Assembly: GCA_022447225.1 (NCBI GenBank)
Contig: JAKVAZ010000007.1
Span: 174,475-238,474, forward strand
Direction of reading: 5' to 3'
Source of the DNA: Fuerstiella sp.
GTDB lineage: Bacteria > Planctomycetota > Planctomycetia > Planctomycetales > Planctomycetaceae
DNA length: 64,000 bases
In this document: positions 9,827 through 23,945 of the stretch, piece after piece
Layout: every line of letters begins with the position of its first letter
Position numbering within the stretch: the first letter of the stretch is position 1
Translations under genes and position numbers: made by a program
The notes under the pieces: generated by a model
Seen by the model: the letters and a program-made list of their open reading frames with translations, nothing else
Database searches by the model: none
What the model was told of the DNA's origin: nothing

Positions 9827-10615
9827 TCAGTTGACCGGTGCCACATCCGGAGTTGGACTTCCGTCCGGTAGAACCTGCGGAGTCCAGCCACTGCCCGATG
9901 GCATAGCCACTACGCCGCTGCTTACGTAATAAACACCGAAGACCAGAATTACTAACAGTCCCAGATAACCGATGACCAATCCGGCCATTGCCAGATTTCG
10001 TCCTTCCAGTTCCGAGTGACTCTGTTGGATTTCGCGGAGTGCCATGTGCCCGCATACCACAGCTGCAATGCTTCCGATCAGTGGTATGAAAGAAAGCACC
10101 AGGCTGTAAAGAGCCAGGTTTGCCACCGGGCTGTGGCCCCGAACCTCGTCACCGGAGGATTCATTCGGACCCGGTGCGGTGGCTGTCTGTCCGGAAAACA
10201 GTCCTGGCAGGGCCTTGTCTGCTCGTTTCCATTCCTCCATTCCATGCGTCCAGACGAGATCATCAGCATTGAGGGTACCGGTAATCTGCGAATGTTTGAG
10301 GATCTCCATAGAAACAGGACCAAGTTGTTGGCCATTGTGATTGTAGAACCAGCCCGCAGAACTTGGTGCAGCGGGCGCCGTCCCGCTTGGGGCGGAATGC
10401 ACGTTGGTATCAACAGTACCGGTTTGACGCATCTTGCGTTCACCCTGCGCTTCGAACAGATCGGGAAATTCGTCGGCCGGTTTCCAGGAACGTCCATCAC
10501 TGGAAACTCGATACTGGCGCCCGAATCGACCACGTTTTGCCATCTGACGAAGACGTTCGACTGTGAATGGCCCCTGTCTTTTACCGCGCACCTGGATATA
10601 AAATGATTTACTCAT
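9827..10615 (-). CDS. GYF-domain and DUF4190 membrane protein
   Basis: This 262-residue protein has two GYF-like domains, at about residues 3-60 and 88-140. The second has WFYNHNGQQLGP and WTHGMEEWKRAD. They are followed by a DUF4190-type membrane region at about residues 165-232 with two hydrophobic helices and ALREIQQS between them. GYF domains bind proline-rich peptides, and the GAP1-N2-type protein three genes earlier in this operon has a proline-rich linker, so the two may bind each other (inference). It is the last gene of the four-gene GTPase operon, 25 bases after the coiled-coil gene. Confidence 0.8.
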   Translation of the reverse strand: MSKSFYIQVRGKRQGPFTVERLRQMAKRGRFGRQYRVSSDGRSWKPADEFPDLFEAQGERKMRQTGTVDTNVHSAPSGTAPAAPSSAGWFYNHNGQQLGPVSMEILKHSQITGTLNADDLVWTHGMEEWKRADKALPGLFSGQTATAPGPNESSGDEVRGHSPVANLALYSLVLSFIPLIGSIAAVVCGHMALREIQQSHSELEGRNLAMAGLVIGYLGLLVILVFGVYYVSSGVVAMPSGSGWTPQVLPDGSPTPDVAPVN

Positions 10616-10640
10616 TTGAAAATATTCTTCAAAACGCAGG

Positions 10641-13550
10641 CTATTGTTCAGTCAGGAAGACGGGGCGTCCTTCAATGAATCCTGTTGAGTCAGCAGATGA
10701 ATCCAGCGCGACGGTTCCGGCAACCACTGATCCAATCGGGGCAAACCTTGATGGCGGTTGTTGATTATTCAGAGACACCATGACAACCAGTGCACCATTA
10801 TCTGCCGGCTGCAGCCGTGTGTTCGTTGAGCAGTTCCAGCGGTCGTCCTGACTTCTGTAAAGCCAGCCGACCCAGCGATACACGGGACCAGGTTTCAATT
10901 TTGCGACTTCGTCCCGCATGGTAACTGCTTTTTCGGCGGCCTGAGCCACCGGGGACATTTCTCCGAGAATTGCCCGTGCATTAATACGTGCGCTGGGTGC
11001 ACCGGACCCTGCGGGCCAAATCCAGTTGGCGTCACCCCCTTCGAACTGATCGATGGCCGTGATGTGTTCCTGAAATGCTTCGCGGAAGAAGAGGCTGCCC
11101 CGGGCTCCGACGTTCATCACGTTGAGGAGTAGTTTCATTTTCACGATTGGATCAATTTCCAGGTCTTCAGCGAGTAATGTGACCAGTTTCCCGAAACTTT
11201 CCTCCCAGTGTTCGTTTACGGTTTCGAGCTCCCTGAGTGCCGTCCGTGCAAACACTGCAGGAGGCGCATCCCAGATGAATTTGAGACCGGCCTGCTTATT
11301 GCTGACAGAACCTTTGAGCACACGCTTTACAGCAGCACGCTTTAGTGTTGTGTCTCTGAACGGCACGATTGTGATGACATCGCCGGTTTCCAGCGGGGGT
11401 TCTTCGGAATCGGAGTAATATCGATCGTCGCCCTGGGCAACCATGAAGGGGAGTTGCAGATAAAATTCCAGTGGAGCACGCAATTGCTCCTGCAGATCAC
11501 CATGATCTCCGACGCGGAGATTCACTGCTTTCAGTGCCTCCGCCTGACGTGCCAAATTACGACCGGCCGGAAACTCATTTGACACTTTCATGAATTTGGC
11601 GAACTCCAGTTGCAGGTTTCCGGCCGTCGTCGGATTCACATCCTTTAGTGATAATGATGCCCACTGATCGCGGAGTTGATTCCATAGTTCCGGTCCTTTC
11701 CACAAATCTGACTCACTTGAGATCACACTTTGAAAGGTAGTCGCCCGCTTTGTACCGGAGTGGTTCCGAACATATGCCAGAAGCTGAGTTCTGTACCGGT
11801 CCACATTTCCGACAGAGGCCGTGATTGTGTTCAGATCAGCAGCGACTTTCATTGAACGCTGATGTTCTGCCCGGGCATTGCCCAGTGTACGAAGAATGGC
11901 TGTGATCGGAATTTTGTGATTTTCACTCACATGAGCTCGACGCTGCAGGCCGCGAAAATCATCCGTGAGCAGTTGATTGGACTTCATATCATTCTCCGTT
12001 CTCTCCTGAAATCGAATCATTACCGCATCAAGATCTGCCAGAAACAGAGTGTCTGCAGCAGACTGCGCCAGCTGCCGGGCTCTCTCCAATACGTTTCTTG
12101 CTTCCTCGACTTCGTTCCGTTCTCCGTCGTCTTTTGCCATCGATTCGGCTCGTTTGAGAACTTCCATTGCCTGACTGATACGATCCCAGTCGGGTGACGA
12201 GCCCAGTTGGTCCGTCGCGGCGGACAACAGTTTCAGGAATGAATTTCGTCGTTCCTGTGCCGTGCTGAGGATCTCCGACAGTTCTCCGTACAACAGCTGT
12301 AATTCCGGACTTTCTGCAACGTCAGGAGATTCTGAACGGAGCTGACTGCAGAATTCTTCAGCCTGTTCGATGTGTTCGTCAGTCAGCAGTTGACGCAGCG
12401 TCTGAGCATGGTTCCGGATGCTTTGTCCGTGCCGGTACTGCAACATCAGTGACAACAGGATTGAACAAATCACTAACGCTGTTGCCGCAATTCCTGCGAC
12501 AATCATTGCGGTCCTGCGACTCGTCTGACGACCAATCTGCGTTTTACGCTCTTCCAGCCGCCTTTCCAGTTCTTCCGGGATCCCCAGATCAAACAGAGAA
12601 ATCGCCTTGGCAGACCGATCCAGTTCGTCGACAGACGAATCCCGGTCGAGGCTGCGTTCCAAAGCCGTTATACTGTTTTGATAGGCATCTTTCTGCAGTT
12701 CCTTTTGCTCTTCTTCTGTGATCCATTCCAGCGCCAGTTCCGTTGTCTCGAATATCGGTTCACCTTCCTGTATTTCGGCCGTAGCAATGAGTGATTCCCA
12801 GCGTTGAGCGTGATGGCGTGCGGTGTCCAGATCGCGGGCAAGGAACGCGTTATTCAGTGCTTCGGCAACATTTTTGAGTTCTTTTCGGGCATCGTACATC
12901 TGTAGGCGAACGCGAACTGTCTGAACTTTTCTGATGAGGTCGTTCGGTGGTCGGTTGCTCCATTTGCGACTGGCAAGTTCTGCTTCCAGAGCGGCCGCCT
13001 GAGTTGTATTTTTGTTCGCCAGAACATTCTCGAGTTCTGACTCAATCTGATTCTGTCGCGCAACTTCATAGACTTCCAGGTCCTCGAGCCACAACGGATT
13101 GTCTTTGTCTTTGTTGGCCAGTTCCCGCAGAATCTGAATCCTGACGGACAACGGGCTGAGTGCCAGAGCATGAAGGCGATGCAGCTTCAGCAGGCCGGAA
13201 ACCGGTTGCGCTGACGCATAGGCGTCATTAAGATCGGACGCAACTTCCAGCAGTAATTCGGGAAGCGGCGGTAACTCGTACTGCGAAACATAGTCCGACC
13301 AGAACTCGATTTCAGGGAAATCCAGAACGGCTGTAAGATCCAGCAGATTGGGTTCTGTTTCGCACTGTTGGATTGCCTCTGTACGCAGTCCTTTGCTCAG
13401 CAGCGCCTCGCATGTTCGCAGCCGTTCGTTGGCGACAGACACGTTTCGGGAATAGTCTGCAACCAGTGTTTCCATATACTCCTGATCCGGATCGTGCTCC
13501 CACGCAAGCACCGACTGAATCTGCTCGATGACAGCTTCGATTTCTCTCAT
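10641..13550 (-). CDS. Large membrane coiled-coil protein of the GTPase operon
   Basis: This 969-residue protein has no family I can name. Residues 1-344 are highly charged and helical with many Glu/Leu/Arg heptad-like stretches. One transmembrane helix follows at about 345-370 (MIVAGIAATALVIC), preceded by GRQTSRR, so the N-terminal part should be cytoplasmic. Residues 371-650 are again helical. The last 300 residues are mixed, with several Trp and Gly and a PVYRWVGWLYR stretch. Its start codon overlaps the stop of the GAP1-N2 gene by four bases (ATGA), implying coupled translation. Its length and layout suggest a scaffold spanning the membrane. Confidence 0.75.
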   Translation of the reverse strand: MREIEAVIEQIQSVLAWEHDPDQEYMETLVADYSRNVSVANERLRTCEALLSKGLRTEAIQQCETEPNLLDLTAVLDFPEIEFWSDYVSQYELPPLPELLLEVASDLNDAYASAQPVSGLLKLHRLHALALSPLSVRIQILRELANKDKDNPLWLEDLEVYEVARQNQIESELENVLANKNTTQAAALEAELASRKWSNRPPNDLIRKVQTVRVRLQMYDARKELKNVAEALNNAFLARDLDTARHHAQRWESLIATAEIQEGEPIFETTELALEWITEEEQKELQKDAYQNSITALERSLDRDSSVDELDRSAKAISLFDLGIPEELERRLEERKTQIGRQTSRRTAMIVAGIAATALVICSILLSLMLQYRHGQSIRNHAQTLRQLLTDEHIEQAEEFCSQLRSESPDVAESPELQLLYGELSEILSTAQERRNSFLKLLSAATDQLGSSPDWDRISQAMEVLKRAESMAKDDGERNEVEEARNVLERARQLAQSAADTLFLADLDAVMIRFQERTENDMKSNQLLTDDFRGLQRRAHVSENHKIPITAILRTLGNARAEHQRSMKVAADLNTITASVGNVDRYRTQLLAYVRNHSGTKRATTFQSVISSESDLWKGPELWNQLRDQWASLSLKDVNPTTAGNLQLEFAKFMKVSNEFPAGRNLARQAEALKAVNLRVGDHGDLQEQLRAPLEFYLQLPFMVAQGDDRYYSDSEEPPLETGDVITIVPFRDTTLKRAAVKRVLKGSVSNKQAGLKFIWDAPPAVFARTALRELETVNEHWEESFGKLVTLLAEDLEIDPIVKMKLLLNVMNVGARGSLFFREAFQEHITAIDQFEGGDANWIWPAGSGAPSARINARAILGEMSPVAQAAEKAVTMRDEVAKLKPGPVYRWVGWLYRSQDDRWNCSTNTRLQPADNGALVVMVSLNNQQPPSRFAPIGSVVAGTVALDSSADSTGFIEGRPVFLTEQ

Positions 13551-16132
13551 GGCACTGCCTTTGTGTTGAGGACATCGACCGGCTGACCATCGTTGACGGT
13601 GTAGGCCCGGACGTGCAGTTTTTTCTCCTCCAACTGATGTTTGAGCTGGCTGAGGACCTGCAGAGTGTTCCCGTAATTTTCAACGGTTTTGATGAGTATT
13701 TCGACGTTCTTCTTCAGTTTGTTTCGATTCAGGCCGGCGACAGGATCCGTGTCGTAATACCCGTCAATTTCGTTCCGAAGTACGTCAAAAAAATTGTCGG
13801 CGTTTATCTCAAGGTTCGAGGGATGCGTCCGTTTGTGATTGATTTCTCTGCGGATGCGTCGATAGATCTTTTGCCGCACGTCTTCCATCGACAACCGGAT
13901 CGCTATGTCTTCCATGTTCCAGTTACTTGCAGAAACACTGCTGATCAGGTCCAGGCTGCCTGCCAGAAATTGTTTGGCGAATTCCGGTGCGCCGGAAGTA
14001 TTCAGCAGTTTTAGATAAACGGCTGGTGTCACAGTCAGGACAATCTGACCTGACTGGGGCCCTGCCGCATCACCTTCGGCAGGTTCGATGACGGACAGAC
14101 TGACTTTCACATCGGCAAGTACACCCAGGTTTGCGCGATCCTGAGGGGACATTTCCGAAGGGGCCGTTTCAACTGTCAGTGCACCGTTGTTACTGAATGC
14201 CAGCAAAAATGAATCGTCGAACCTGAGACCGGACAGTTCAAATCCTTTTACGGCTTCGTGACGGAGATCAAACTGTAGTGCCGTGGCCACAACGTCATGA
14301 AAGTCTCCCGGCAGATCCAGTCTGATTTCGACCGATGAGTGCTGATCTGCAACCGGCATTCTCAGCAACGGAGCTGTTTCGGGTTCTCGAAATGAAAAGA
14401 TCTCAGAACGTTCATCAACCGTGAGTTTCAGCAGACTGTAGTGAAGGACTGTCACGCGCGGATCCGCATTTCTTCCCGTGGATTGGTATGCAAAGTTGCT
14501 GCCATCCACAGTGAATGTGCCGATCTCTGTTGGTTTGCCTCCACCGGAGGCGTCCATCTCTGCTGTCCAGACCCGTGCTGATGCCTGCAGAGAATTGCCG
14601 GCTGTCTTATTCTGTTCTTGGAATCGAAGTGCGCGGATGGCTGATTTGTCTGCTGCATTCGGAAGCAGTATTTCAAGACTGCAGCGTGTCAAGTCATCCA
14701 GTGGCAGGGACTTACTGACTGTGTTGTCTGTTTTTGACACTACCAGTGGAATCAATCCGCTTGGGAGCTTTTCCAGGGCAATTTTTGCCAGCGGGTCGAT
14801 TGGTGAATCTTTGATGTCACTTCCAAGCGAACGACGAATTTTCAAATGCGGTTGTCTTGTCGTTGCAGGTTTCGGATCTGTGTGTTGCCGGAAACCGGAC
14901 TTCACGGAATTGCCTGTGTCCTCTTCAGTTTCCGGCGGGGCTGCAGTTTGGGAGGTGGTGACATCATTTGTTTTTGGGTATTGCGTATTCCCGTCTGGCG
15001 GGTTGCGATCAGCGGGGACGATCGGGAGTGGTGGAGTTTTTGATACCGAGTTCTGTCCTGCGTAGTAGGCCGCAGCAACCAGTCCGCCGACGCAGCTCAA
15101 CAACATCAGCGCCGTCAGGATCCAGGTGATCTTTCGCTGATGCCATGGAATTCGTCTGCCCGGCAGTTCGGGGGGTACCGGCATGCCCTGATATTGACTG
15201 TACGCCCCGTACTGACCTGACGCTTCGGTATATTCAGTATCTGCCGGAGGACTTAGCTGAGCCTGTCGGCGAGGGAGCATCCTGTTAACGGGTTCATTCT
15301 CTGTTGCCGATGGTACGCTGAATTGATCGCTGTAGCTGGCATTTGGTCTGCCGCTGCGCGCCGAAGACGAAAAAGGGGTTTCCGGTGGTGGTCCGGGATT
15401 TCCACACAGGTCGACAACATGCATTGTCGGGCTGTGTCTTAGTGAGGCAGCCTGTTTCGTGCCATCAAGAACAAAACGCCACAGGCAGTCACTGCCTGCA
15501 ATCGGCTTTGTATAGTATGTGTTGAATGTCACATTCCAGCGGCGGGCCGGTGAGATCAGATTCAACGCTTCAACCACCAGTACCAGTGAATTGGTACCCA
15601 CCGGGACGATCACGGAAACCGGTTTTTGTTTTGTCCGGGTGGCTGAGTCAGCCAGTACCCCGGCCCATCCGGCGTCTCCGGCAAGACGCTTCCACTGAGA
15701 GCAGACGCTCGGCTTGGAATATACTGCATTTGGTCGGCGACCTGTCGGCAATGTCCTGACATTCCCGTCCCAGCGTTTTTCACAAAATCCGTCGTGTGCG
15801 AGTACCGCGGCAGGTCCTGCGATCACAAGTTCGTTTGGTGCCAGTGCGACATGATGCGCCAGTTTGTTGGATCGTTGTGAATAGTCCAGACCGGCGTCAC
15901 AAATCCGTGACAGAACGTAGTATCGCTGACTGGATACTTTGATATGCAGGTGAGAGTAATTCACCGGAGCTTTGCAGTCACCTGGTGTAAAGGCATGTCG
16001 GTAGCCACTGAGCATCTCCAGTCGCTCAGAAATATTCGCTGCAATTCCATCGGTACTGACGACCGTACAAAATCCTTTGCTGCCGGGCTTCAGACCCTGC
16101 GGCGCGGACGTATACACGATCTCGTGACTCAT
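13547..16132 (-). CDS. GAP1-N2-type GTPase-associated protein with membrane anchor
   Basis: The first 250 or so residues of this 861-residue protein match what I recall of the GTPase-associated protein 1 N-terminal domain type 2 (GAP1-N2). The start is EIVYTSAPQGLKPGSKGFC, followed by PVNYSHL near residue 56 and a conserved block with ICDAGLDY and NKLAHHV near residues 77-95. This domain is found next to bacterial GTPases of the double-GTPase group. Here it is followed by a Pro/Ser/Gln-rich linker (about 250-330), a transmembrane helix (about 334-355) after basic residues, a second low-complexity linker, and an exported C-terminal region of about 430 residues of unknown fold. It overlaps both neighbours by ATGA. 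Confidence 0.75.
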   Translation of the reverse strand: MSHEIVYTSAPQGLKPGSKGFCTVVSTDGIAANISERLEMLSGYRHAFTPGDCKAPVNYSHLHIKVSSQRYYVLSRICDAGLDYSQRSNKLAHHVALAPNELVIAGPAAVLAHDGFCEKRWDGNVRTLPTGRRPNAVYSKPSVCSQWKRLAGDAGWAGVLADSATRTKQKPVSVIVPVGTNSLVLVVEALNLISPARRWNVTFNTYYTKPIAGSDCLWRFVLDGTKQAASLRHSPTMHVVDLCGNPGPPPETPFSSSARSGRPNASYSDQFSVPSATENEPVNRMLPRRQAQLSPPADTEYTEASGQYGAYSQYQGMPVPPELPGRRIPWHQRKITWILTALMLLSCVGGLVAAAYYAGQNSVSKTPPLPIVPADRNPPDGNTQYPKTNDVTTSQTAAPPETEEDTGNSVKSGFRQHTDPKPATTRQPHLKIRRSLGSDIKDSPIDPLAKIALEKLPSGLIPLVVSKTDNTVSKSLPLDDLTRCSLEILLPNAADKSAIRALRFQEQNKTAGNSLQASARVWTAEMDASGGGKPTEIGTFTVDGSNFAYQSTGRNADPRVTVLHYSLLKLTVDERSEIFSFREPETAPLLRMPVADQHSSVEIRLDLPGDFHDVVATALQFDLRHEAVKGFELSGLRFDDSFLLAFSNNGALTVETAPSEMSPQDRANLGVLADVKVSLSVIEPAEGDAAGPQSGQIVLTVTPAVYLKLLNTSGAPEFAKQFLAGSLDLISSVSASNWNMEDIAIRLSMEDVRQKIYRRIRREINHKRTHPSNLEINADNFFDVLRNEIDGYYDTDPVAGLNRNKLKKNVEILIKTVENYGNTLQVLSQLKHQLEEKKLHVRAYTVNDGQPVDVLNTKAVP

Positions 16133-17451
16133 AGACCGCCGCCTCCATTCGGCCTTCGCGGGTCACTGTTTCTGTTCTTTCCGGTATAGGCCATGATCAT
16201 GCCGGGAACCGTGCGGTAAATAGCGTACAGCAGAGGAATTTCTGTCCAGACGGGTTTGATGTCAGCCGGTCGAACGATGAATTCTTCCCGGTCGTCGGTT
16301 TTGATGAGTTCGGGGCCCTGTCCAAGAGCACTGGCGGCAATGTACGTCACGTCCTTCGAAAACCCGTCTGCTGCACTTACAAACTCGGGCGCAAGTTCAG
16401 CCATGAGTTTGCGGAGTTTTGCCGACATTCGTTCCAGACGGTCGATATCAAGGGCCGTTTTTCCGGAACGAGTTGTGCGCAGAAAATAGTCCGGCGGGAT
16501 ATCACTGCTGTCCATTAGCGAATTCCACGCATCATACTTTGTGACAACAATGATCAGTGGACGGCTGTCACGGTCTGCCTGACGCAGGCCCGTCTGAGCG
16601 CGAATTCTACTCTCGGCCTCCAGCAGAATTTTATCCTGTCGAAAGTTCCAGCCACGTTCTCCCATTTGCGGGTCGGTGCTTGTACCGGAACATCGGTTTC
16701 GAAACTCGTGGTGCTGGGTGGGGTCAAACAGAAACAGCAGTGCTTTCGACACGGACAGATGCTGTGTTCCCGGATTGTTGGACGATTCTTCCCCCGGCAT
16801 AAAGTGTTCGCCGGCATTGTCGTAAAGACACAGAGCACGAGACATTGACTTTAAGTGACTGAATCGTGGATGCTGTGGCTGCGGTTTTACCGAAAAGACA
16901 AACGGCCTGGGGAACAGAACCGGACGGCCTCCCAGTACCACCGATTCGTACAGATCTCCTTCCTTTTCTGTTTTCGGCAGCGTCACAGGGGCGTTGCGAT
17001 CGTTGTTCAGAAACAGGATCTCTTCGTACTGGTTCACGATTCGATTTGAGGCCGGGTCTGCGTCACCAAATGCGATCTGGAATTTGGAACTGAACGCCTT
17101 TCGCAACTGCCAGATTGATGCGGCAAGATAGTAGGATTTTCCGGATCCCGGAGCACCCAGGATCGAAAAAAACAAAGGATTCAATTCCAGAGAGGCGCGG
17201 ACAACTGTCAGATGACATCGTGGACAGGCAAGGTGGTGACAAACCTCCCCTTTGACGTCAATTGCATGGCCATTCTCATTCAGTCGAGTTGGCAGAAACC
17301 GTCGCTGGCCGCGGGGCGTGACGATTTCATCATCATCCAGATCGGGGTGAGCCGAAACCCACAAAGCCTCTTCAGGAGGAAACCTGGTCCAGCAGTGAGG
17401 ACAGGTGGCCCTCGGGAGCAGTGAAGTGGGACGTTGAAAGGCACTAGGCAT
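16129..17451 (-). CDS. Zinc-ribbon GTPase (double-GTPase 2-like)
   Basis: This 440-residue cytoplasmic protein has a split zinc ribbon (Cys17, Cys20, Cys76, Cys79), then a P-loop GAPGSGKS at residues 99-106. DNAGEH near residue 213 fits the G3 motif, VVTKYD near 302 fits the NKxD-type guanine motif, and ASALG near 370 fits G5. The composition fits the DO-GTPase2 group that accompanies GAP1-N2 proteins in comparative-genomic surveys. It is the first gene of the operon, with its start codon reached after a leader hairpin. No clear ribosome binding site is visible. ATP rather than GTP use cannot be excluded from sequence. Confidence 0.75.
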   Translation of the reverse strand: MPSAFQRPTSLLPRATCPHCWTRFPPEEALWVSAHPDLDDDEIVTPRGQRRFLPTRLNENGHAIDVKGEVCHHLACPRCHLTVVRASLELNPLFFSILGAPGSGKSYYLAASIWQLRKAFSSKFQIAFGDADPASNRIVNQYEEILFLNNDRNAPVTLPKTEKEGDLYESVVLGGRPVLFPRPFVFSVKPQPQHPRFSHLKSMSRALCLYDNAGEHFMPGEESSNNPGTQHLSVSKALLFLFDPTQHHEFRNRCSGTSTDPQMGERGWNFRQDKILLEAESRIRAQTGLRQADRDSRPLIIVVTKYDAWNSLMDSSDIPPDYFLRTTRSGKTALDIDRLERMSAKLRKLMAELAPEFVSAADGFSKDVTYIAASALGQGPELIKTDDREEFIVRPADIKPVWTEIPLLYAIYRTVPGMIMAYTGKNRNSDPRRPNGGGGL

Positions 17452-17739: not shown

Positions 17740-20700
17740 TCATTTAACCTCGACACATCTGTTTGCCTCAAGTAACAGAAGTGATGACGAGATGAACGTT
17801 TTCGGAATTCCGAAACACCGGGTAACGGCGGTACGATACTCACGCAGCTGGTTTTCGTAGTCTTCTTTTTTTGATTCCGTCCACTGGTCGATTTCGCCAA
17901 CAATCCGATCTGATTTGAAGTCGATGATTTCTGCGGCCAGTCTTTTTCCTGAATTTTCAGCGATCACAAGTCGATCGATTTTACCGTGAACAATGCAGTC
18001 TTGTTCACGGTAAACGAAGGGCCGTTCAGGAATCACCCGAAGGTCCAGTCGGGAATGTTCTGCGAGTCCAGGCATTTGCTGGAATCGTTTTCGTGTTGCG
18101 TCCTGTGTGAGGACCGACTTCGCTGAGGTCCGGTTAATGAACTCCAGGAACTCTGTCAAAAGTACTTCGATAGCTGCATCAGCAATATGCAGCGCCTGTA
18201 TTGACGGATCCGTTGTGGTTTCCCGTAACCGACTCCGTGTCAGCGGTTCTCCACAGTCCAGCCAGAGAATCCGTTCGAACCATGCGTGAATCAGCATTCC
18301 ACGGGTTTTCCCGTCAACAACCGAACAATCGCCGGTAGGCGACAATGTGTGACTGGTCAGTGGCAGGCGGGTTGTTCTATGTTCGGACGGCGTGCGACGG
18401 ACCAGACCGCGCCGACGACCTCCTGTCATGGTGGCTAAATGCAGCTGAGGATCCGCTGTTTGATGTTCTGTTTTGCTCCGGTCGGACGGTACCTGAGTAT
18501 GAGGGACCTGATGAAACCAGGATGCATTTCCGGTCTTCCAGATCTGTGAATCATCTTCGAGGACTTCTGTGTCAGAAAATACGGCGGCCAGGATTCCGGC
18601 CAGAGTTTTCCGGGTTGTCTTCGTTTCCGGTGGAATAAGCAGATGCAGCGCGTGAACAGCGCGAGTCAGTGTAACGTAAAGCAGGCACAGTGAACCCCGG
18701 ACAATCTCATCAGTTGTTTGCGCCATTGCGTTTTGCAGCTGTTGAGGCAACAAATGTCGTAATCCCCTGTCAACCCATACACAGACGTCTTCCGGTGCTG
18801 CCGCACGACCGGGCCTGTCGGCTGCGACTGCCGGAACCTTGACTAATGGGCCGGTGAGTTCCGGCGCAACGACAATTTCGAATTCCAGTCCTTTGCTCTG
18901 ATGAACCGTCATGACGCGAACCCGGGACGGCACACTGCGACTGAATCTTGAGGACTCCAGATGCTGAACAAATTCTGCCGGATTGAGGGATGATGTCACA
19001 TCGAACTGCCAGGCTTCTGAAACAACCTGCTGCAAACGAATTCTGTCACGATCGCTGCATTCATTTTGTACCGCTTCCATAATCCACTGGAGTGTGGCGC
19101 CGTAACCGTTATCCAGCAGACGACCACGAATGAAGGATGCTGTGGCCATTGCCGCAGCATCGTCCTGCCACTGATCGAAACCTACGACTCTGGCGAGTGG
19201 AGAGTGAGCAACGTGGTAACGTGAAACGGTGCAACCGGGATGACTGGACAGATAGAGCAGAGACATGACAGCAAGCACGGCGGGACTGTCAGTCGGCGGA
19301 GTTCCGCCTTCTTCACTCGCAGGGACACCAAGTTGGGTTAGTTGATGCACAAGCTGAGCAACACCATTATTGGTTCGCATCAGGACGCCAATTTCCGCAC
19401 CAGGGCACCGCAGATGGATACTGTGTATCTGTTCCGCAACCCAATTGTTGTAAGCAGCCTTTCTGTCAGATTCGGAATCATCACCGGTCCGGGGCGCGGT
19501 TCTCAACTCCGCAAATCCAGGTAAATCGGCAAGGTGAGTCGAATGGACCGGATAATTCCCGCTCCATTCAAGGCTGGCTTTGGCATATTCTTCCAGGTGC
19601 TTGTGTCGGTGCAGTTTCTGAAACACATGATTGACGGTTTCAATTACGGCCGGAGCCGATCGTCGACTCTCGTTCAATGGTTCAGCCGCAATCCCCGGAA
19701 TCGTTGCCTGAACTTCATCCATGACTTCAGCATCTCCTCCGCGCCAGCCGTAGATCGCCTGCTTTGGATCTCCCACGCAGAACACACTGGACGGATTGTC
19801 GGATGTAAATTTGATCAGCGGCTTGATCAGTTGCTTCAGGACTTTCCACTGATCGAGTGAGGTGTCCTGAAATTCATCCAGCAACAGATGGCGAAACGAA
19901 CTGTCCAGTCGATAATTAACGCGGTGTCCTTCGATCATGTTCCCCGAGCAGGCAAGCAGGCGGGTGATTTCACTGAATCGTGTGAAACCAGTGTCGCGGC
20001 GCAAACGTTGATACGCGGTATCGAATCGGTGAATCAGTCGCCATGCTGCCTGGTTGTGGTGTGCGATTTGGTTAAGGATTTCAGTTCGGGCATGTCTCAC
20101 AAGCGGTTCATACGCACAGATCAGTTCTGGTGAAAGATCCTGTCGGCCGAATTGTTGTCGGCCGGATGATACGGCTGCCGCGATCCCTTTCGTCAGAAAT
20201 TCGGACCAGTTTCCGTCGTGAAATCGGTGCAGATCAGCTGCTCGTGTTTTTGGCTGCTGTTTGCCGCTCAGCGCAACTTCCTTCAACGCATCGATACAGA
20301 TCTGTAGATCCGGTTTTGACCGACCGGCTGTCTGAGGGATGCGGTTCCACGCCTGGGAATCCGTCTGCAGAAACAGTTCATAGTAGCCCTCTACGGCTTC
20401 ATCAATCAGCGAACGAACACTGCGACGACTTCGCCCCCTGGCCAGCATCTGCATGAGCTGGCGAGAGTCTTTGGTATCCTGTTCTGCCAGCACCGCATCA
20501 ATTGCCCGCTGGCGCAATACAGTGTCGGTGAAGTCATCGGCAATAGACCATCCCGGAGGTAAGCCGAGTTCCAGAGTCAGGTTGCGTGCGATCTGCTGAA
20601 AGAAGCTGTCGAGTGTCGAGACACGCAGACGGTGCAGCTGTCTCGTCAGTTGACTCAGTAATTCAGTAACTCGCGGCTGAGTCAACTGAAGTGGAGACAT

Positions 20701-20913
20701 TGCACCCGCCAACTCATCATATTTCTGACTGTCAACACAGGATTCCGCCAGTCTCACCAGCAGACGTCCAAGAATTTCACCCGCCGCTTTACGGGTGAAC
20801 GTGGTTGCCAGAATGGTTTCCGGACGTGCTCCCTCAAACAGCTGTCGGAGGAAATGGCCGGAAAGATTCCACGTTTTTCCGGTGCCGGCCGATGCTCGAA
20901 TCAGTTGGTGCAT
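17740..20913 (-). CDS. UvrD-like helicase with C-terminal RecB nuclease domain (AddA-like)
   Basis: This 1057-residue protein is a superfamily 1A helicase-nuclease acting at double-strand DNA ends. The Walker A motif ASAGTGKT is at residues 7-14, motif Ia TTFTRKAAGE near 38, Walker B LLLDEFQDTS near 345, motif III GDPKQAIYGWRGGD near 378, and the QSKGLEFEIV motif near 670. The C-terminal nuclease core holds HGKIDRL and AEIIDFKSD near 975-1000, giving the catalytic Asp and Lys. The protein begins almost directly at the Walker motif, so the usual Q-motif is short. It lies 38 bases after the AddB-like gene and is presumably cotranscribed with it. Confidence 0.88.
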   Translation of the reverse strand: MHQLIRASAGTGKTWNLSGHFLRQLFEGARPETILATTFTRKAAGEILGRLLVRLAESCVDSQKYDELAGAMSPLQLTQPRVTELLSQLTRQLHRLRVSTLDSFFQQIARNLTLELGLPPGWSIADDFTDTVLRQRAIDAVLAEQDTKDSRQLMQMLARGRSRRSVRSLIDEAVEGYYELFLQTDSQAWNRIPQTAGRSKPDLQICIDALKEVALSGKQQPKTRAADLHRFHDGNWSEFLTKGIAAAVSSGRQQFGRQDLSPELICAYEPLVRHARTEILNQIAHHNQAAWRLIHRFDTAYQRLRRDTGFTRFSEITRLLACSGNMIEGHRVNYRLDSSFRHLLLDEFQDTSLDQWKVLKQLIKPLIKFTSDNPSSVFCVGDPKQAIYGWRGGDAEVMDEVQATIPGIAAEPLNESRRSAPAVIETVNHVFQKLHRHKHLEEYAKASLEWSGNYPVHSTHLADLPGFAELRTAPRTGDDSESDRKAAYNNWVAEQIHSIHLRCPGAEIGVLMRTNNGVAQLVHQLTQLGVPASEEGGTPPTDSPAVLAVMSLLYLSSHPGCTVSRYHVAHSPLARVVGFDQWQDDAAAMATASFIRGRLLDNGYGATLQWIMEAVQNECSDRDRIRLQQVVSEAWQFDVTSSLNPAEFVQHLESSRFSRSVPSRVRVMTVHQSKGLEFEIVVAPELTGPLVKVPAVAADRPGRAAAPEDVCVWVDRGLRHLLPQQLQNAMAQTTDEIVRGSLCLLYVTLTRAVHALHLLIPPETKTTRKTLAGILAAVFSDTEVLEDDSQIWKTGNASWFHQVPHTQVPSDRSKTEHQTADPQLHLATMTGGRRRGLVRRTPSEHRTTRLPLTSHTLSPTGDCSVVDGKTRGMLIHAWFERILWLDCGEPLTRSRLRETTTDPSIQALHIADAAIEVLLTEFLEFINRTSAKSVLTQDATRKRFQQMPGLAEHSRLDLRVIPERPFVYREQDCIVHGKIDRLVIAENSGKRLAAEIIDFKSDRIVGEIDQWTESKKEDYENQLREYRTAVTRCFGIPKTFISSSLLLLEANRCVEVK

Positions 20914-20951
20914 AGAAACGGGGAGTCCGTTGAGGTGATCAACAAGCTGTC

Positions 20952-23945
20952 TCAGTGGCTGGATCTGGTGTTGACTGAACTTTGAGAGCGTCCGGACCAG
21001 TCGGCCAGCCAGGGAATGTGACGATCAATGACCGAGTCCTGGCAAATTCGTGTCAGGTCGTCCTGATACATTCCATTCACAGGCTGGAGTCGGTCGATTT
21101 GCAGATCCACGATTTGTGCCGCTAACTGCTTCGCTTTTTCTTCAGCGCCGTTCAGTTCTTCCGGAGTCCAGTCAGCAATGCTGGTGCCGATGTACTTGAG
21201 ATCCCCGGGCAGATTCACGTAACCCAGCTGCACGTTTGAATCAATACCCATTTCCCGAATCAGCAGTCGATACAGTGGAAGCTGAAGATCGATCCAGTCG
21301 CCCTTTTTCCGGTGTGTTGATTTCGGATTCTGTGCTCTCTCACTGGTTTTGTAGTCCAGTACTCTCCATTCACCGGATTGACTGTGCCGATCAATTCGAT
21401 CGATACGACCAACGATCGTCAGAGGACGTCCCAGAGCATCATGCACGTTGTATTCCAGACTGCGTTCACAAAATTTGATTTTCCAGCCATCTGATACCTG
21501 TCGTGCCTGCCATTCAGCAAATGCTCTCAGACGTTCTGAGGCCATCTGAAGCTGTACGGCCACAGTGGCAGACAGCTGATTTCCGAAGCGTTCCAGAGCC
21601 TCCTGATGCAGATTGTTCAAAAGCGTTTCTTCGATAAGATCAACGCTGCTGAAATGGCGCGTGGCACCCGTCCCGAACTGACTCAGCACAGTATGCAGTA
21701 AATTGCCGAACAGGCGGCCGTCCATCTCTCGCGGCTGGTCTTCAATTGATGTGAGACCGATTTCCCGCCGAAGTAAATATCGATACGGACAGCTGATATA
21801 GTCACGAAAATGGGTTACCGGAATCTGTGTTGGTTGTGAAGTCTGTTGTGGTGCAGGAATGACGAAGGCGGATTGCCGACTTGTGCTGAATTTGGCCGGT
21901 GGATCTCCGGGGAGAGCGTCAGGCAGTGTCGAACCTGATTTGCGTTCCTGATAGAAACGAAGCACTCGACCTGGAACATCGGACTCGTTGCCCGCAAACC
22001 ACAGTCTGCTGGGAGCCAGTGGATTGCCCTGAACATCCCGGCGACCTGCGATCAGTCGTACCTGTTGTCTACAGTTCAGTAATGATTCCAGTGCCCAGGT
22101 GTCACGAGCGTAGCGACGTTTATTGTCGGTCAATCCCAGCTTTGTCCGAATGGTATCCGGCAAAAACACGTCTGAATTTGTTGATTCAGGAACCCGCCCC
22201 TCGTTGAATCCCGCTACGGTCACGACCGGACAGTCATCGAGTGGCAGTTCCAGCCATCCCATCAGATCAATCGCAGAGTTATTCGGAGCGGATGCGATGT
22301 TGAGATCTCCGATCTGCATCAGCAGTACCGGAAGTGCCTGAGCTGCCGTACACGCGGGTATGACTTCAGCGGGAATCTGCCGCAGCGTTTCGTTGAGTTC
22401 GTTCAGGGCATTGATGCAGGCGATCATGGATTCGTCGCGCTGATCATCCCCGCCCGTCGAATAGTCTGCGTAGACCAGATCCAGCAGCCGAAGGGTTCCG
22501 GTTGCCCAGTCGCTCAGTGGGTGACGAACCATTAACCCGCGATGCACGGTGTTTGGGTCCGGAACGCCTGTATCGTTGAACTGCGAGTTGTGAACCGGGC
22601 TGTCGGTTCGATTTTGTTCCTGCAGGTTCAACTTCGTTTTGGTGAAAGGACGATCCGGCAGAAGTTGCGAAAGCAATTGTGTCACGGACGCGCAGATACA
22701 TTCAACGATGTTTGTCCGGGGATGATGTCCCAGTGTGCGGCCTGGAACCGGCTGCAGGTGGTCGGCTCGGTAGCTGTCGAGTTCGGCAAGCCAGTTTGTG
22801 GCCGCCTGTACACCCTGTTTCTGCAGTTGCTGTTCTATGAATGCAGTTACATCCGAATGGCGCACCAAATCTGTCAGACTTGGGAAATCGGGTCTCTGAC
22901 GGTCGTCTGCTGTTGCCAGATGCGACGCAACGGCGTCCAGGAGTCTCCAGGGGCGTGAAGCACGCAGGTGTGATCCAATCGGCCAGCGTCCGGACACGCC
23001 CGCCAGGGCCAGAGACTGCAGAATCACCGGTACCAGACTGTCATCTGTGACCCCGACAGCGATCTCATCAGCACGATTGATTCCATTCAGTGTCGCCAGA
23101 TGATCCACAACAGCGTCGGCCTGGTCCTGAGGTGTATCTGTTACCAACGTGGTTTCGTCGGGAATGTGAACAACGCGATCCTGCCATTTGTCAGCAACCA
23201 GGCACCCCCACTGATCGAAGTGATCGGCGATGGATTGCGGTGCACAAACCAGTGCCGTGACGCGATCGGAGACCTGGTCCAGCATCTTCCTGACGATGCC
23301 GTTCATATCCACTGTTCCAACCAGTATGATGTCGTGATTCGTCGTGCATTCCTGCTGATCAACAGCAATCAGTCGAGCGGTCTGCCGGTCCCACAACTGC
23401 AGCGCATCCATACGCATGAGATATTCGGACTGAATCCTTCGAAGGGCCTTCCAGCGTTCAGTTTCTTCTGTCAGTTCGGTTCGCGACAGAATCCGGAACA
23501 CGTCATCGAAATCCAGACCCTCTGCTGCCAGTTCATCGTGCTGTCGCCTCAGTGAATCACAGAGGTTAATCCACGATGGCAGAGATGTTTCCGGCGGAAG
23601 AGTGGCGATTGCCGAATGAAGCTGCTGTGGTGGTACCGCACGGATTGCTGTCATCCATACCAGAAGCTGGGTGAGCTGATCCGCCATTTTTTTTTGTTGC
23701 GGATAAAGCAGTTCCGGAAAGTGCAGGAACGTAACCATCCGGGGCGGGATCAGAGAAGGAAACCGGGATTCCGCACGCTCGACCAGCAGTTCAAGCATTC
23801 GGCGTGCAGCGCGTCTTGCAGGAAAGACTAGGATGACCTTTGACAGGTCCAGATCATCGGTTGAGGCATATCGGCGGATCAGATAATCAGCAACCAGCGG
23901 CAGAGCCGGTTGCTTCCATCCGGTAAAGTGACGTTTGACTGCCAT
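20952..23945 (-). CDS. AddB-like PD-(D/E)XK nuclease subunit
   Basis: This 997-residue protein is the likely partner of the adjacent AddA-like helicase in processing broken DNA ends. The N-terminal half resembles an inactivated helicase: VILVFPARRAARRM replaces the P-loop. GFNEGRVPE near 595 and the CPYRYLLRREIGL region near 720 are typical of AddB and related proteins. The C-terminal nuclease core contains IVGRIDRIDR and WRVLDYKTS near residue 858, followed by LQLPLYRLL. I see only the one CPYRY cysteine in the right place, so the iron-sulfur cluster of Bacillus AddB is probably missing. Confidence 0.82.
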   Translation of the reverse strand: MAVKRHFTGWKQPALPLVADYLIRRYASTDDLDLSKVILVFPARRAARRMLELLVERAESRFPSLIPPRMVTFLHFPELLYPQQKKMADQLTQLLVWMTAIRAVPPQQLHSAIATLPPETSLPSWINLCDSLRRQHDELAAEGLDFDDVFRILSRTELTEETERWKALRRIQSEYLMRMDALQLWDRQTARLIAVDQQECTTNHDIILVGTVDMNGIVRKMLDQVSDRVTALVCAPQSIADHFDQWGCLVADKWQDRVVHIPDETTLVTDTPQDQADAVVDHLATLNGINRADEIAVGVTDDSLVPVILQSLALAGVSGRWPIGSHLRASRPWRLLDAVASHLATADDRQRPDFPSLTDLVRHSDVTAFIEQQLQKQGVQAATNWLAELDSYRADHLQPVPGRTLGHHPRTNIVECICASVTQLLSQLLPDRPFTKTKLNLQEQNRTDSPVHNSQFNDTGVPDPNTVHRGLMVRHPLSDWATGTLRLLDLVYADYSTGGDDQRDESMIACINALNELNETLRQIPAEVIPACTAAQALPVLLMQIGDLNIASAPNNSAIDLMGWLELPLDDCPVVTVAGFNEGRVPESTNSDVFLPDTIRTKLGLTDNKRRYARDTWALESLLNCRQQVRLIAGRRDVQGNPLAPSRLWFAGNESDVPGRVLRFYQERKSGSTLPDALPGDPPAKFSTSRQSAFVIPAPQQTSQPTQIPVTHFRDYISCPYRYLLRREIGLTSIEDQPREMDGRLFGNLLHTVLSQFGTGATRHFSSVDLIEETLLNNLHQEALERFGNQLSATVAVQLQMASERLRAFAEWQARQVSDGWKIKFCERSLEYNVHDALGRPLTIVGRIDRIDRHSQSGEWRVLDYKTSERAQNPKSTHRKKGDWIDLQLPLYRLLIREMGIDSNVQLGYVNLPGDLKYIGTSIADWTPEELNGAEEKAKQLAAQIVDLQIDRLQPVNGMYQDDLTRICQDSVIDRHIPWLADWSGRSQSSVNTRSSH

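What the first reader, a model, noticed from the sequence alone, without database searches (positions are those of the whole stretch)
9827..17451. Four-gene GTPase operon: candidate undescribed membrane signalling or defence system
Seen: four minus-strand genes with two ATGA overlaps and one 25-base gap, coding for a zinc-ribbon GTPase, a GAP1-N2-type protein with a membrane helix, a 969-residue membrane coiled-coil protein and a GYF/DUF4190 membrane protein. Known: GAP1-N2 domains and double-GTPase 2 proteins were grouped by comparative genomics as linked partners of unproven function, some suggested to be conflict systems. Inferred: the GTPase switches an assembly that spans the membrane. 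The coiled-coil partner and the GYF protein have no described role that I know of.
Basis: partly seen in the sequence, partly recalled or inferred. Interest (0 to 1): 0.78.

Follow-up and report, generated by a model that had tools for sequence, protein, structure and literature searches.

The report
GTPase-switched envelope machine in planctomycetes
Four neighbouring genes in a planctomycete bacterium encode a GTPase switch with membrane partners; relatives keep the same genes in the same order and often add a gene from the family of ion-driven membrane motors, which suggests an undescribed energy-coupled machine, although this particular copy has no motor gene beside it.

Summary
The four-gene operon is real and its coordinates are exact. 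Genes 1 and 2 are a DO-GTPase2 and a GAP1-N2/GAP1-M protein, a pair predicted in 2020 (Kaur et al., eLife). That paper also mentions planctomycete versions with a two-GYF protein, so the operon is not wholly undescribed. Four things go beyond its main text as far as I read it. (1) The 969-residue partner ("CC") is a constant component: 22 of 25 strong copies in 392 Planctomycetota genomes lie within 8 kb of GAP1-N2. It is alpha-helical, not a classical coiled coil. (2) Many relatives continue the operon with a dedicated MotA/TolQ/ExbB-family gene and two single-TM proteins. (3) In one clade GYF is fused to a PilB/GspE-type ATPase, and GAP1 and CC end just after their membrane helix. (4) The predicted GAP1 head resembles DENN/longin GTPase regulators. 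Best reading: a GTPase-gated assembly spanning the inner membrane, driven in relatives by an exchangeable motor. The window's copy lacks a motor gene beside it, probably by loss, and no function was tested. The two single-TM proteins failed a profile test for TolR/ExbD. I class it as a new variant of a known kind.

The parts
16129..17451 (-). gene 1: DO-GTPase2-type GTPase with an N-terminal CPxC...CPxC zinc-ribbon-like region (440 aa)
   Evidence: PF19993 1.6e-6; C17, C20, C76, C79, P-loop, DNAGE and K305/D307 invariant in 18 sequences
17134..17157 (-). P-loop GAPGSGKS, residues 99-106
16807..16821 (-). G3/Walker B motif DNAGE, residues 211-215 (the glutamate described for DO-GTPases)
   Evidence: glutamate described in PMC7159879 (passage)
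13547..16132 (-). gene 2: GAP1, cytosolic GAP1-N2 and GAP1-M, one TM helix, about 500-residue outer part (861 aa)
15281..16132 (-). GAP1 residues 1-284: predicted head resembling DENN/longin GTPase regulators
   Evidence: model (10-residue block means 88-98 for residues 1-260); VIA-align; Foldseek
15053..15139 (-). GAP1 helix 332-360 containing the predicted TM segment
   Evidence: hydropathy of relatives
10641..13550 (-). gene 3 (CC): alpha-helical protein, cytosolic 1-345, TM about 346-375, outer part 376-969 (969 aa)
   Evidence: no consistent Pfam family in 47 relatives
9827..10615 (-). gene 4: two GYF_2 domains (residues about 5-50 and 89-133) plus DUF4190 membrane region 167-225 (262 aa)

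Best explanation
The operon encodes a GTPase-gated assembly across the inner membrane, a planctomycete variant of the DO-GTPase2/GAP1-N2 systems. Shown by sequence: an intact GTPase with a zinc-ribbon-like region, GAP1 and CC proteins that each cross the membrane once, and a GYF membrane adaptor. Inferred: the DENN/longin-like head of GAP1 binds the GTPase and controls its nucleotide state (exchange, hydrolysis or both). The outer parts of GAP1 and CC act as arms that sense or transmit force to the envelope. The GYF protein docks the energy unit, possibly on the proline-rich linker of GAP1. In many relatives the energy unit is an operon-encoded MotA/TolQ/ExbB-family protein with two single-TM partners (a presumed ion-driven motor). 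In one clade it is a PilB/GspE-type ATPase fused to GYF, and the outer arms are gone. The window's copy has no motor gene beside it; it may work as a switch or sensor alone, or borrow the unlinked MotA/ExbB-like block of its genome. What the machine does for the cell (gliding or adhesion, secretion, envelope upkeep or defence) is open.
For: Order GTPase-GAP1-CC-GYF in 45 of 45 complete loci; median gaps 3, 46 and 23 bases. Over 392 phylum genomes, CC has 25 strong places in 23 genomes, 22 of 25 within 8 kb of a GAP1-N2 match; 22 genomes have both. MotA_ExbB Pfam matches above cut-off in the gene after GYF in L065 and in homologues in L079 and L025. Of the 83 places found with its profile at E<=1e-20, the top 19 include 18 within 10 kb of a CC place (16 strong, 2 weak), and the other 64 include none (27, 37). 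27 of 99 unique GTPase loci have this gene downstream and 14 of the 27 also show two R genes, several others being cut by contig ends. R1 and R2 are homologous (98.9%) and share one invariant aspartate at the start of the TM helix in 19 sequences. T2SSE fused to GYF: Pfam 1e-96 to 1e-102 in the three scanned, nearest solved structures PilB, E 5e-72. In 10 of 10 such loci GAP1 and CC end 0-7 residues after the predicted TM helix. The GAP1 head ranks DENND1A, DENND1B, a DENND10-containing complex and TagF first (Z 8.1, 7.7, 7.3, 7.0), and Foldseek independently ranks DENND1B, TagF and C9orf72:SMCR8 first. Two arginines in the head are conserved, R76 44/45 and R87 45/45.
Against: The window has no motor gene in the operon, and the closest MotA-like match in its genome is weak and unlinked (8.8e-20, about 104 kb away). 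17 of 68 loci lack the motor, 6 of them T2SSE loci, and 23 of 68 could not be judged. R1/R2 do not match ExbD by profile-profile comparison (at most 1.3% probability; positive control 99.9%) nor consistently any Pfam family, so calling them TolR-like rests on position, topology and one residue. Foldseek gave no GAP1 hit at E<=1e-3, Z near 8 is borderline by the tool's own note, and GAP1 showed no profile match to TagF (an imperfect test). The T2SSE form is one clade, so the joint loss of both outer arms is one event, not ten; L063 lost most of the CC arm but kept GAP1's. GYF docking on GAP1 prolines is weak: PP 126 observed against 78 shuffled in 47 loci, but 50 against 42 in 25 others, and only 10 PPG in the 47. 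No experiment.
Confidence: 0.5

Rival explanations
1. Anti-phage or other biological-conflict system, as Kaur et al. proposed for DO-GTPase/GAP1: the outer arms sense an invader at the envelope, the GTPase switches, and an effector (channel, protease or ATPase) is fired, somewhat as in Zorya, which also uses a MotA-type channel.
For: The family was predicted to be a conflict system (PMC7159879). The system is patchy: GAP1-N2 in 36 and strong CC in 23 of 392 genomes. The outer parts evolve fast. The downstream module varies: MotA-type, T2SSE or Trypsin_2. The MotA-type protein matches ZorA models weakly (3.7e-5 and 2.7e-4; Zorya's mode of action is recalled).
Against: No PADLOC match better than 0.024 to the four window proteins. 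ZorA similarity covers only the common MotA core. Scanned window neighbours are not defence genes. Fixed gene order and one copy per genome in the window's genome. I did not survey relatives' neighbours for defence genes.
Confidence: 0.25
2. A secretion or pilus-like assembly controller: the GTPase complex gates an assembly ATPase or export apparatus, and the MotA-type version is the derived variant.
For: GYF fused to a PilB/GspE-type ATPase in 10 loci. TagF, a T6SS repressor, is among the structural neighbours of GAP1 (repression stated in the abstract of PMC5995506 as listed).
Against: No pilin, GspF/PilC or secretin gene was recognised by eye beside the short-form operons apart from scattered prepilin-like ORFs in L073 and L080 (not scanned with profiles). 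The T2SSE form is one clade nested among loci with the MotA-type gene, so it looks derived.
Confidence: 0.12
3. A plain envelope-stress or surface-signalling switch without a motor: GAP1 and CC sense, the GTPase signals, GYF anchors. The MotA-type genes of relatives would be a side module.
For: The window, its sister L063 and seven Rhodopirellula/Stieleria-group loci lack the module. In that group an ECF sigma factor and a kinase lie upstream.
Against: The MotA-type subfamily is almost exclusive to CC loci (18 of 19 against 0 of 64), and the tree places the window's copy inside a motor-bearing group (98 SH-aLRT), which points to loss.
Confidence: 0.13

Closest known systems
DO-GTPase2/GAP1-N2 GTPase-centric systems (Kaur et al. 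2020, PMC7159879)
   Same: DO-GTPase2 with zinc ribbon, downstream GAP1-N2/GAP1-M gene, TM segments, two-GYF partner in planctomycetes
   Different: No FNIII-repeat component found. A constant CC partner, MotA-type and R genes, and a GYF-T2SSE fusion are not in the main text passages or word searches. Figures and source data were not available.
Agl-Glt gliding machinery of Myxococcus xanthus with MglA
   Same: GTPase, GYF-containing membrane protein (window GYF matches the GltJ model at 2.8e-5), one TolQ-type and two small TM proteins in relatives. MglA acts on AglR and GltJ (passage in PMC12288465); AglR is MotA/TolQ/ExbB, AglQ and AglS are ExbD/TolR (passage in PMC3169522).
   Different: DO-GTPase2 instead of an MglA-type GTPase, GAP1 instead of MglB, R1/R2 do not match ExbD, and no motor in the window.
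DENN/longin GTPase regulators (DENND1, FLCN-FNIP, C9orf72-SMCR8) and TagF
   Same: Predicted fold of GAP1 residues 1-284, encoded next to a GTPase
   Different: No sequence-level similarity shown; partner is a TRAFAC DO-GTPase rather than Rab, Arf or Rag; activity unknown.
Zorya ZorA/ZorB
   Same: MotA-type core in relatives' motor gene
   Different: Weak score, no ZorC/ZorD-type partner recognised, different gene set.

Membership tests
DO-GTPase2/GAP1-N2 system | GTPase of the DO-GTPase2 family with the Walker B glutamate | tested here: met
   PF19993 1.6e-6 just above cut-off; DNAGE invariant in 18 of 18
DO-GTPase2/GAP1-N2 system | GAP1 with N2 and M domains encoded downstream of the GTPase | tested here: met
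   both domains in 45 of 45 aligned relatives; ATGA overlap
DO-GTPase2/GAP1-N2 system | two N-terminal zinc ribbons in the GTPase ('usually', section 29) | tested here: inconclusive
   one set of four invariant cysteines C17, C20, C76, C79 seen; metal binding not testable
DO-GTPase2/GAP1-N2 system | FNIII-repeat component (said of GAP1-N2 systems in general) | tested here: not met
   no FNIII among the Pfam matches of the window proteins or in the family lists for 45 GAP1 and 47 CC (first 25 of 51 families shown). The core pair is met, so this is filed as a variant, not a plain member.
[quoted passage not shown]
   two GYF_2 stretches; description
Agl-Glt machinery | MglA-type GTPase | tested here: not met
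   only DO-GTPase2 above cut-off, no MglA/Ras-type family at E<=1
Agl-Glt machinery | TolQ-type plus two ExbD/TolR-type proteins | tested here: not met
   absent from the window operon; in relatives MotA_ExbB is met but R1/R2 do not match ExbD
Zorya | ZorA/ZorB with ZorC/ZorD | tested here: not met
   only weak MotA-core matches in relatives, none convincing in the window proteins
DENN/longin regulators | longin plus DENN fold | tested here: inconclusive
   Z 8.1 over 239 residues, 5.4 A; Foldseek probability 0.98 but E 5.4e-3; prediction only
DENN/longin regulators | GEF or GAP activity on a GTPase | not testable with these tools
   R76 and R87 are conserved candidates

The most novel reading that the evidence does not exclude
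A new class of GTPase-switched, energy-coupled trans-envelope machines with exchangeable motors (MotA/TolQ-type ion channel or PilB/GspE-type ATPase), in which GAP1 is a bacterial DENN/longin-type regulator of its GTPase, so that a eukaryote-like GTPase control module runs an envelope machine in Planctomycetota.
Probability: 0.33. Interest if true: 0.88.

Novelty: new variant of a known kind. Interest (0 to 1): 0.68.

Why it matters
The DO-GTPase/GAP1 systems are so far known, as far as my searches show, only from comparative genomics. A linked motor gene, an alternative ATPase and a fold prediction for GAP1 turn 'a GTPase pair of unproven function' into a concrete mechanism that can be tested: does GAP1 control the GTPase, and does the GTPase control a motor? 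If GAP1 is truly DENN/longin-like, it bears on where eukaryotic GTPase regulators came from. A 2012 analysis derived the longin domain from prokaryotic MglB-type proteins and treated the fuller DENN module as an early eukaryotic assembly (PMC3521125, passages).

Tried and rejected
Rejected: 'coiled coil' for CC. The model shows helical repeats and rods; Foldseek found nothing at E<=1e-3 and VIA-align only generic helical-repeat matches (best Z 8.3).

Rejected: R1/R2 as proven TolR/ExbD. Profile-profile comparison failed (first attempt with unsuitable options, repeated properly). The ExbD set was what my ORF picker recovered from 30 loci (19 rows, one 5-aa row dropped). PDB profile hits of R were coiled-coil noise. 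Pfam on 19 members showed no ExbD among the first 25 of 134 families.

Inconclusive: GAP1 against TagF profiles. Only 15 of 20 loci gave an ORF, several cut short by my choice of start. MQ profile against PDB sequences gave no hit. The GTPase profile gave only weak partial hits to EngA/Der-type and other proteins. GASH as a relative of CC: GASH is in 1 of 199 genomes, too few for a profile; Pfam on CC shows no GASH in the rows listed.

GYF docking on GAP1 prolines: a lead only. The first genome-contig scan with CC alone found nothing. Paper searches with GltJ, MglA and GYF or zinc found none. The search for planctomycet, TolQ, GTPase, gliding (3 of 4 terms) gave 21 papers, 10 listed, seen as a listing only. 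'GYF domain' with 'planctomycet' gave only Kaur et al.. Papers with at least two of TagF, DENN, longin: 51, of which the 20 listed have no TagF.

Papers: PMC7159879 outline, section 29 and passages; PMC11237479, PMC3169522, PMC12288465, PMC3521125 and PMC8213707 passages only; PMC5995506 only the abstract start in a listing. Zorya's mode of action and the GYF ligand PPG-phi are recalled.

Full report
OBSERVATION. The four ORFs, the two ATGA overlaps and the 25-base gap are exactly as reported. Pfam finds DO-GTPase2 in gene 1 (1.6e-6, just over its cut-off), GAP1-N2 and GAP1-M in gene 2 (5.6e-24, 5.6e-11), two GYF_2 stretches and DUF4190 in gene 4, and nothing convincing in gene 3. In the genome (5.43 Mb, 33 contigs) the GAP1-N2 model, the GTPase profile and the CC protein each match once.

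WHAT WAS KNOWN. Kaur et al. 2020 (PMC7159879; section 29 read in full, other parts as passages) named DO-GTPases and GAP1 and predicted conflict systems. [quoted passage not shown] The window's GYF protein fits the TM-rich form, and two relatives (L105, L126) carry GYF plus Trypsin_2. The words TolQ, MotA, ExbB, ExbD and PilT do not occur in its main text, 'secretion system' occurs only in a reference title, and DENN, longin, roadblock and TagF do not occur. I could not see its figures or source data, so I cannot exclude that some of the following is drawn there.

THE OPERON IS CONSERVED. A GTPase profile found 326 relatives in genome contigs, and the best 80 were fetched (L063-L142). The titles of 78 of the 80 name planctomycete taxa; two say only 'bacterium'. 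Of the 78 unique GTPase loci among them, 47 have at least 7 kb downstream, and 41 of these have GAP1, CC and GYF on the same strand. The six exceptions lack all three (L091, L096), GYF (L114, L125, L129) or a GAP1 in the expected place (L133). In all 45 loci with the three genes the order is GAP1, CC, GYF, and median gaps are 3, 46 and 23 bases. These are the best-scoring loci, so the share is not a phylum-wide rate. Phylum-wide, 36 of 392 genomes have GAP1-N2 (44 places, 42 over the cut-off) and 23 have a strong CC match (25 places, E<=2e-28), with 22 having both. 22 of the 25 CC places lie within 8 kb of GAP1-N2; the other three are on contigs without a GAP1-N2 match. 18 of the 44 GAP1-N2 places have no CC within 10 kb, some at contig ends and others of a different subtype, for instance with a shorter GTPase. 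So CC marks a subtype. Eleven weak CC matches (E 4e-9 to 8e-6) were kept apart.

THE MEMBRANE-SPANNING PARTS. CC is predicted as a helical cytosolic part (1-345), a TM stretch of low confidence (346-375) and a helical outer part with beta regions at 702-745 and 890-968. GAP1 has a well-predicted head, a helix at 332-360 and a poorly predicted outer part. Residues 459-585 look Ig-like at Z about 4. In alignments of the operon members the cytosolic parts are conserved, while the outer parts are variable and often missing.

THE MOTOR MODULE IN RELATIVES. After GYF many loci carry a MotA/TolQ/ExbB-family gene (MQ; Pfam 2.7e-8 in L065, 9.8e-10 in L079, 1.4e-10 in L025, all over the cut-off) and two single-TM genes, R1 and R2. 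27 of 99 unique GTPase loci have MQ downstream, and 14 of those show two R genes. A profile of MQ found 83 places at E<=1e-20 in the 392 genomes. Of the top 19, 18 are within 10 kb of a CC place (16 strong, 2 weak). Of the other 64, none is. So this MQ subfamily belongs to CC operons. R1 and R2 are homologous and share one invariant residue, an aspartate at the TM start, in 19 sequences, as expected of TolR/ExbD/MotB partners (recalled). But they fail a profile comparison with ExbD and show no consistent Pfam family, so this identity is inferred.

THE ATPase FORM. In ten loci GYF is fused to a T2SSE domain. The three scanned with Pfam gave 2e-96 to 2e-102, the rest were recognised by BLAST against L080, and the nearest solved structures are PilB. 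In all ten, GAP1 and CC end 0-7 residues after the predicted TM helix. Two further loci have a short CC: L063, which keeps a long GAP1, and L098.

HISTORY. A quick GTPase tree of 68 loci puts the ten T2SSE loci in one clade (one change, with undetermined L078 inside it), needs five changes for the motor (28 with, 17 without, 23 undetermined), and places the window with L063 (100) inside a clade that holds three motor-bearing loci (98). Supports are SH-aLRT only and several branches are long. The simplest reading is loss of the motor genes in the window's lineage. A same-genus contig (L025) carries CC, MQ, GYF, R1 and R2. The window's genome has an unlinked MotA-like gene with two R-like neighbours about 104 kb away; whether it serves the operon is unknown.

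THE GAP1 HEAD. VIA-align ranks 6ekk (DENND1A:Rab35, Z 8.1, 239 residues, 5.4 A), 3tw8 (DENND1B, 7.7), 8p0v (complex with DENND10, 7.3) and 9t0n (TagF, 7.0) first, then FLCN and roadblock-longin entries at 5.3 and TagF 6iz8 at 4.9. Unrelated Ig domains, matching another part of the model, start at 4.4. Foldseek puts 3tw8 (E 5.4e-3, probability 0.98), 9t0n (1.9e-2, 0.75) and 7mge (1.9e-2, 0.33) on top, with none at E<=1e-3. This is a consistent but borderline structural prediction without sequence support (one search found none for TagF). Longin-type GAPs can act through an arginine (SMCR8 Arg147; passages of PMC8213707). GAP1 has two conserved arginines in the head, R76 (44/45) and R87 (45/45). 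Whether GAP1 is a GEF, a GAP or neither is unknown.

MECHANISM. See Best explanation. The closest working analogy is the Agl-Glt machine of Myxococcus, where the GTPase MglA acts on AglR (TolQ-type) and GltJ. The window's GYF protein has a weak domain-level match to the GltJ model (2.8e-5, 23 bits against a cut-off of 450). This is a 'works like' argument, not membership: the GTPase is of another family, and the motor is missing in the window.

VERDICT. The new content is the CC component, the linked MotA-type module, the T2SSE form and the DENN-like prediction.

Noticed in passing
L199:7591-12440 (G000 contig C7, about 75591-80440): The window's genome carries an unlinked MotA-like gene (416 aa) followed by two large R-like proteins (750 and 403 aa).
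   Followed up: partly
L109, L112, L122, L128, L131, L132, L136; L118: Rhodopirellula/Stieleria-group loci lack the motor genes and have an ECF sigma factor gene (Pfam in L132) and a large kinase gene (Pfam in L122) upstream; six loci (L109, L112, L118, L122, L128, L132) have an uncharacterised protein of about 880 aa downstream.
   Followed up: partly
L068, L076, L098 and others between GAP1 and CC: In several loci an extra gene lies between GAP1 and CC; in L068, L076 and L098 it encodes a proline-rich N-terminus before a hydrophobic segment, a possible GYF ligand; no Pfam match in the two scanned (L068, L098).
   Followed up: partly
L038, L039, L044, L040, L111, L135: A second GAP1 copy lies upstream of the GTPase, so some systems carry paired GAP1 genes.
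   Followed up: no
L107, L117: A divergent MQ/R block lies upstream on the opposite strand next to a 606-645 aa protein; the one in L107 has zinc-ribbon-like cysteines.
   Followed up: no
L098, with similar genes in L079, L115, L133: An HSP70 gene lies near the operon (Pfam in L098), recalling the HSP70 theme of Kaur et al. in other phyla.
   Followed up: no
window 17740-23945 (-): UvrD-type helicase and PD-(D/E)XK protein pair, AddAB-like, directly upstream of the operon on the same strand.
   Followed up: partly
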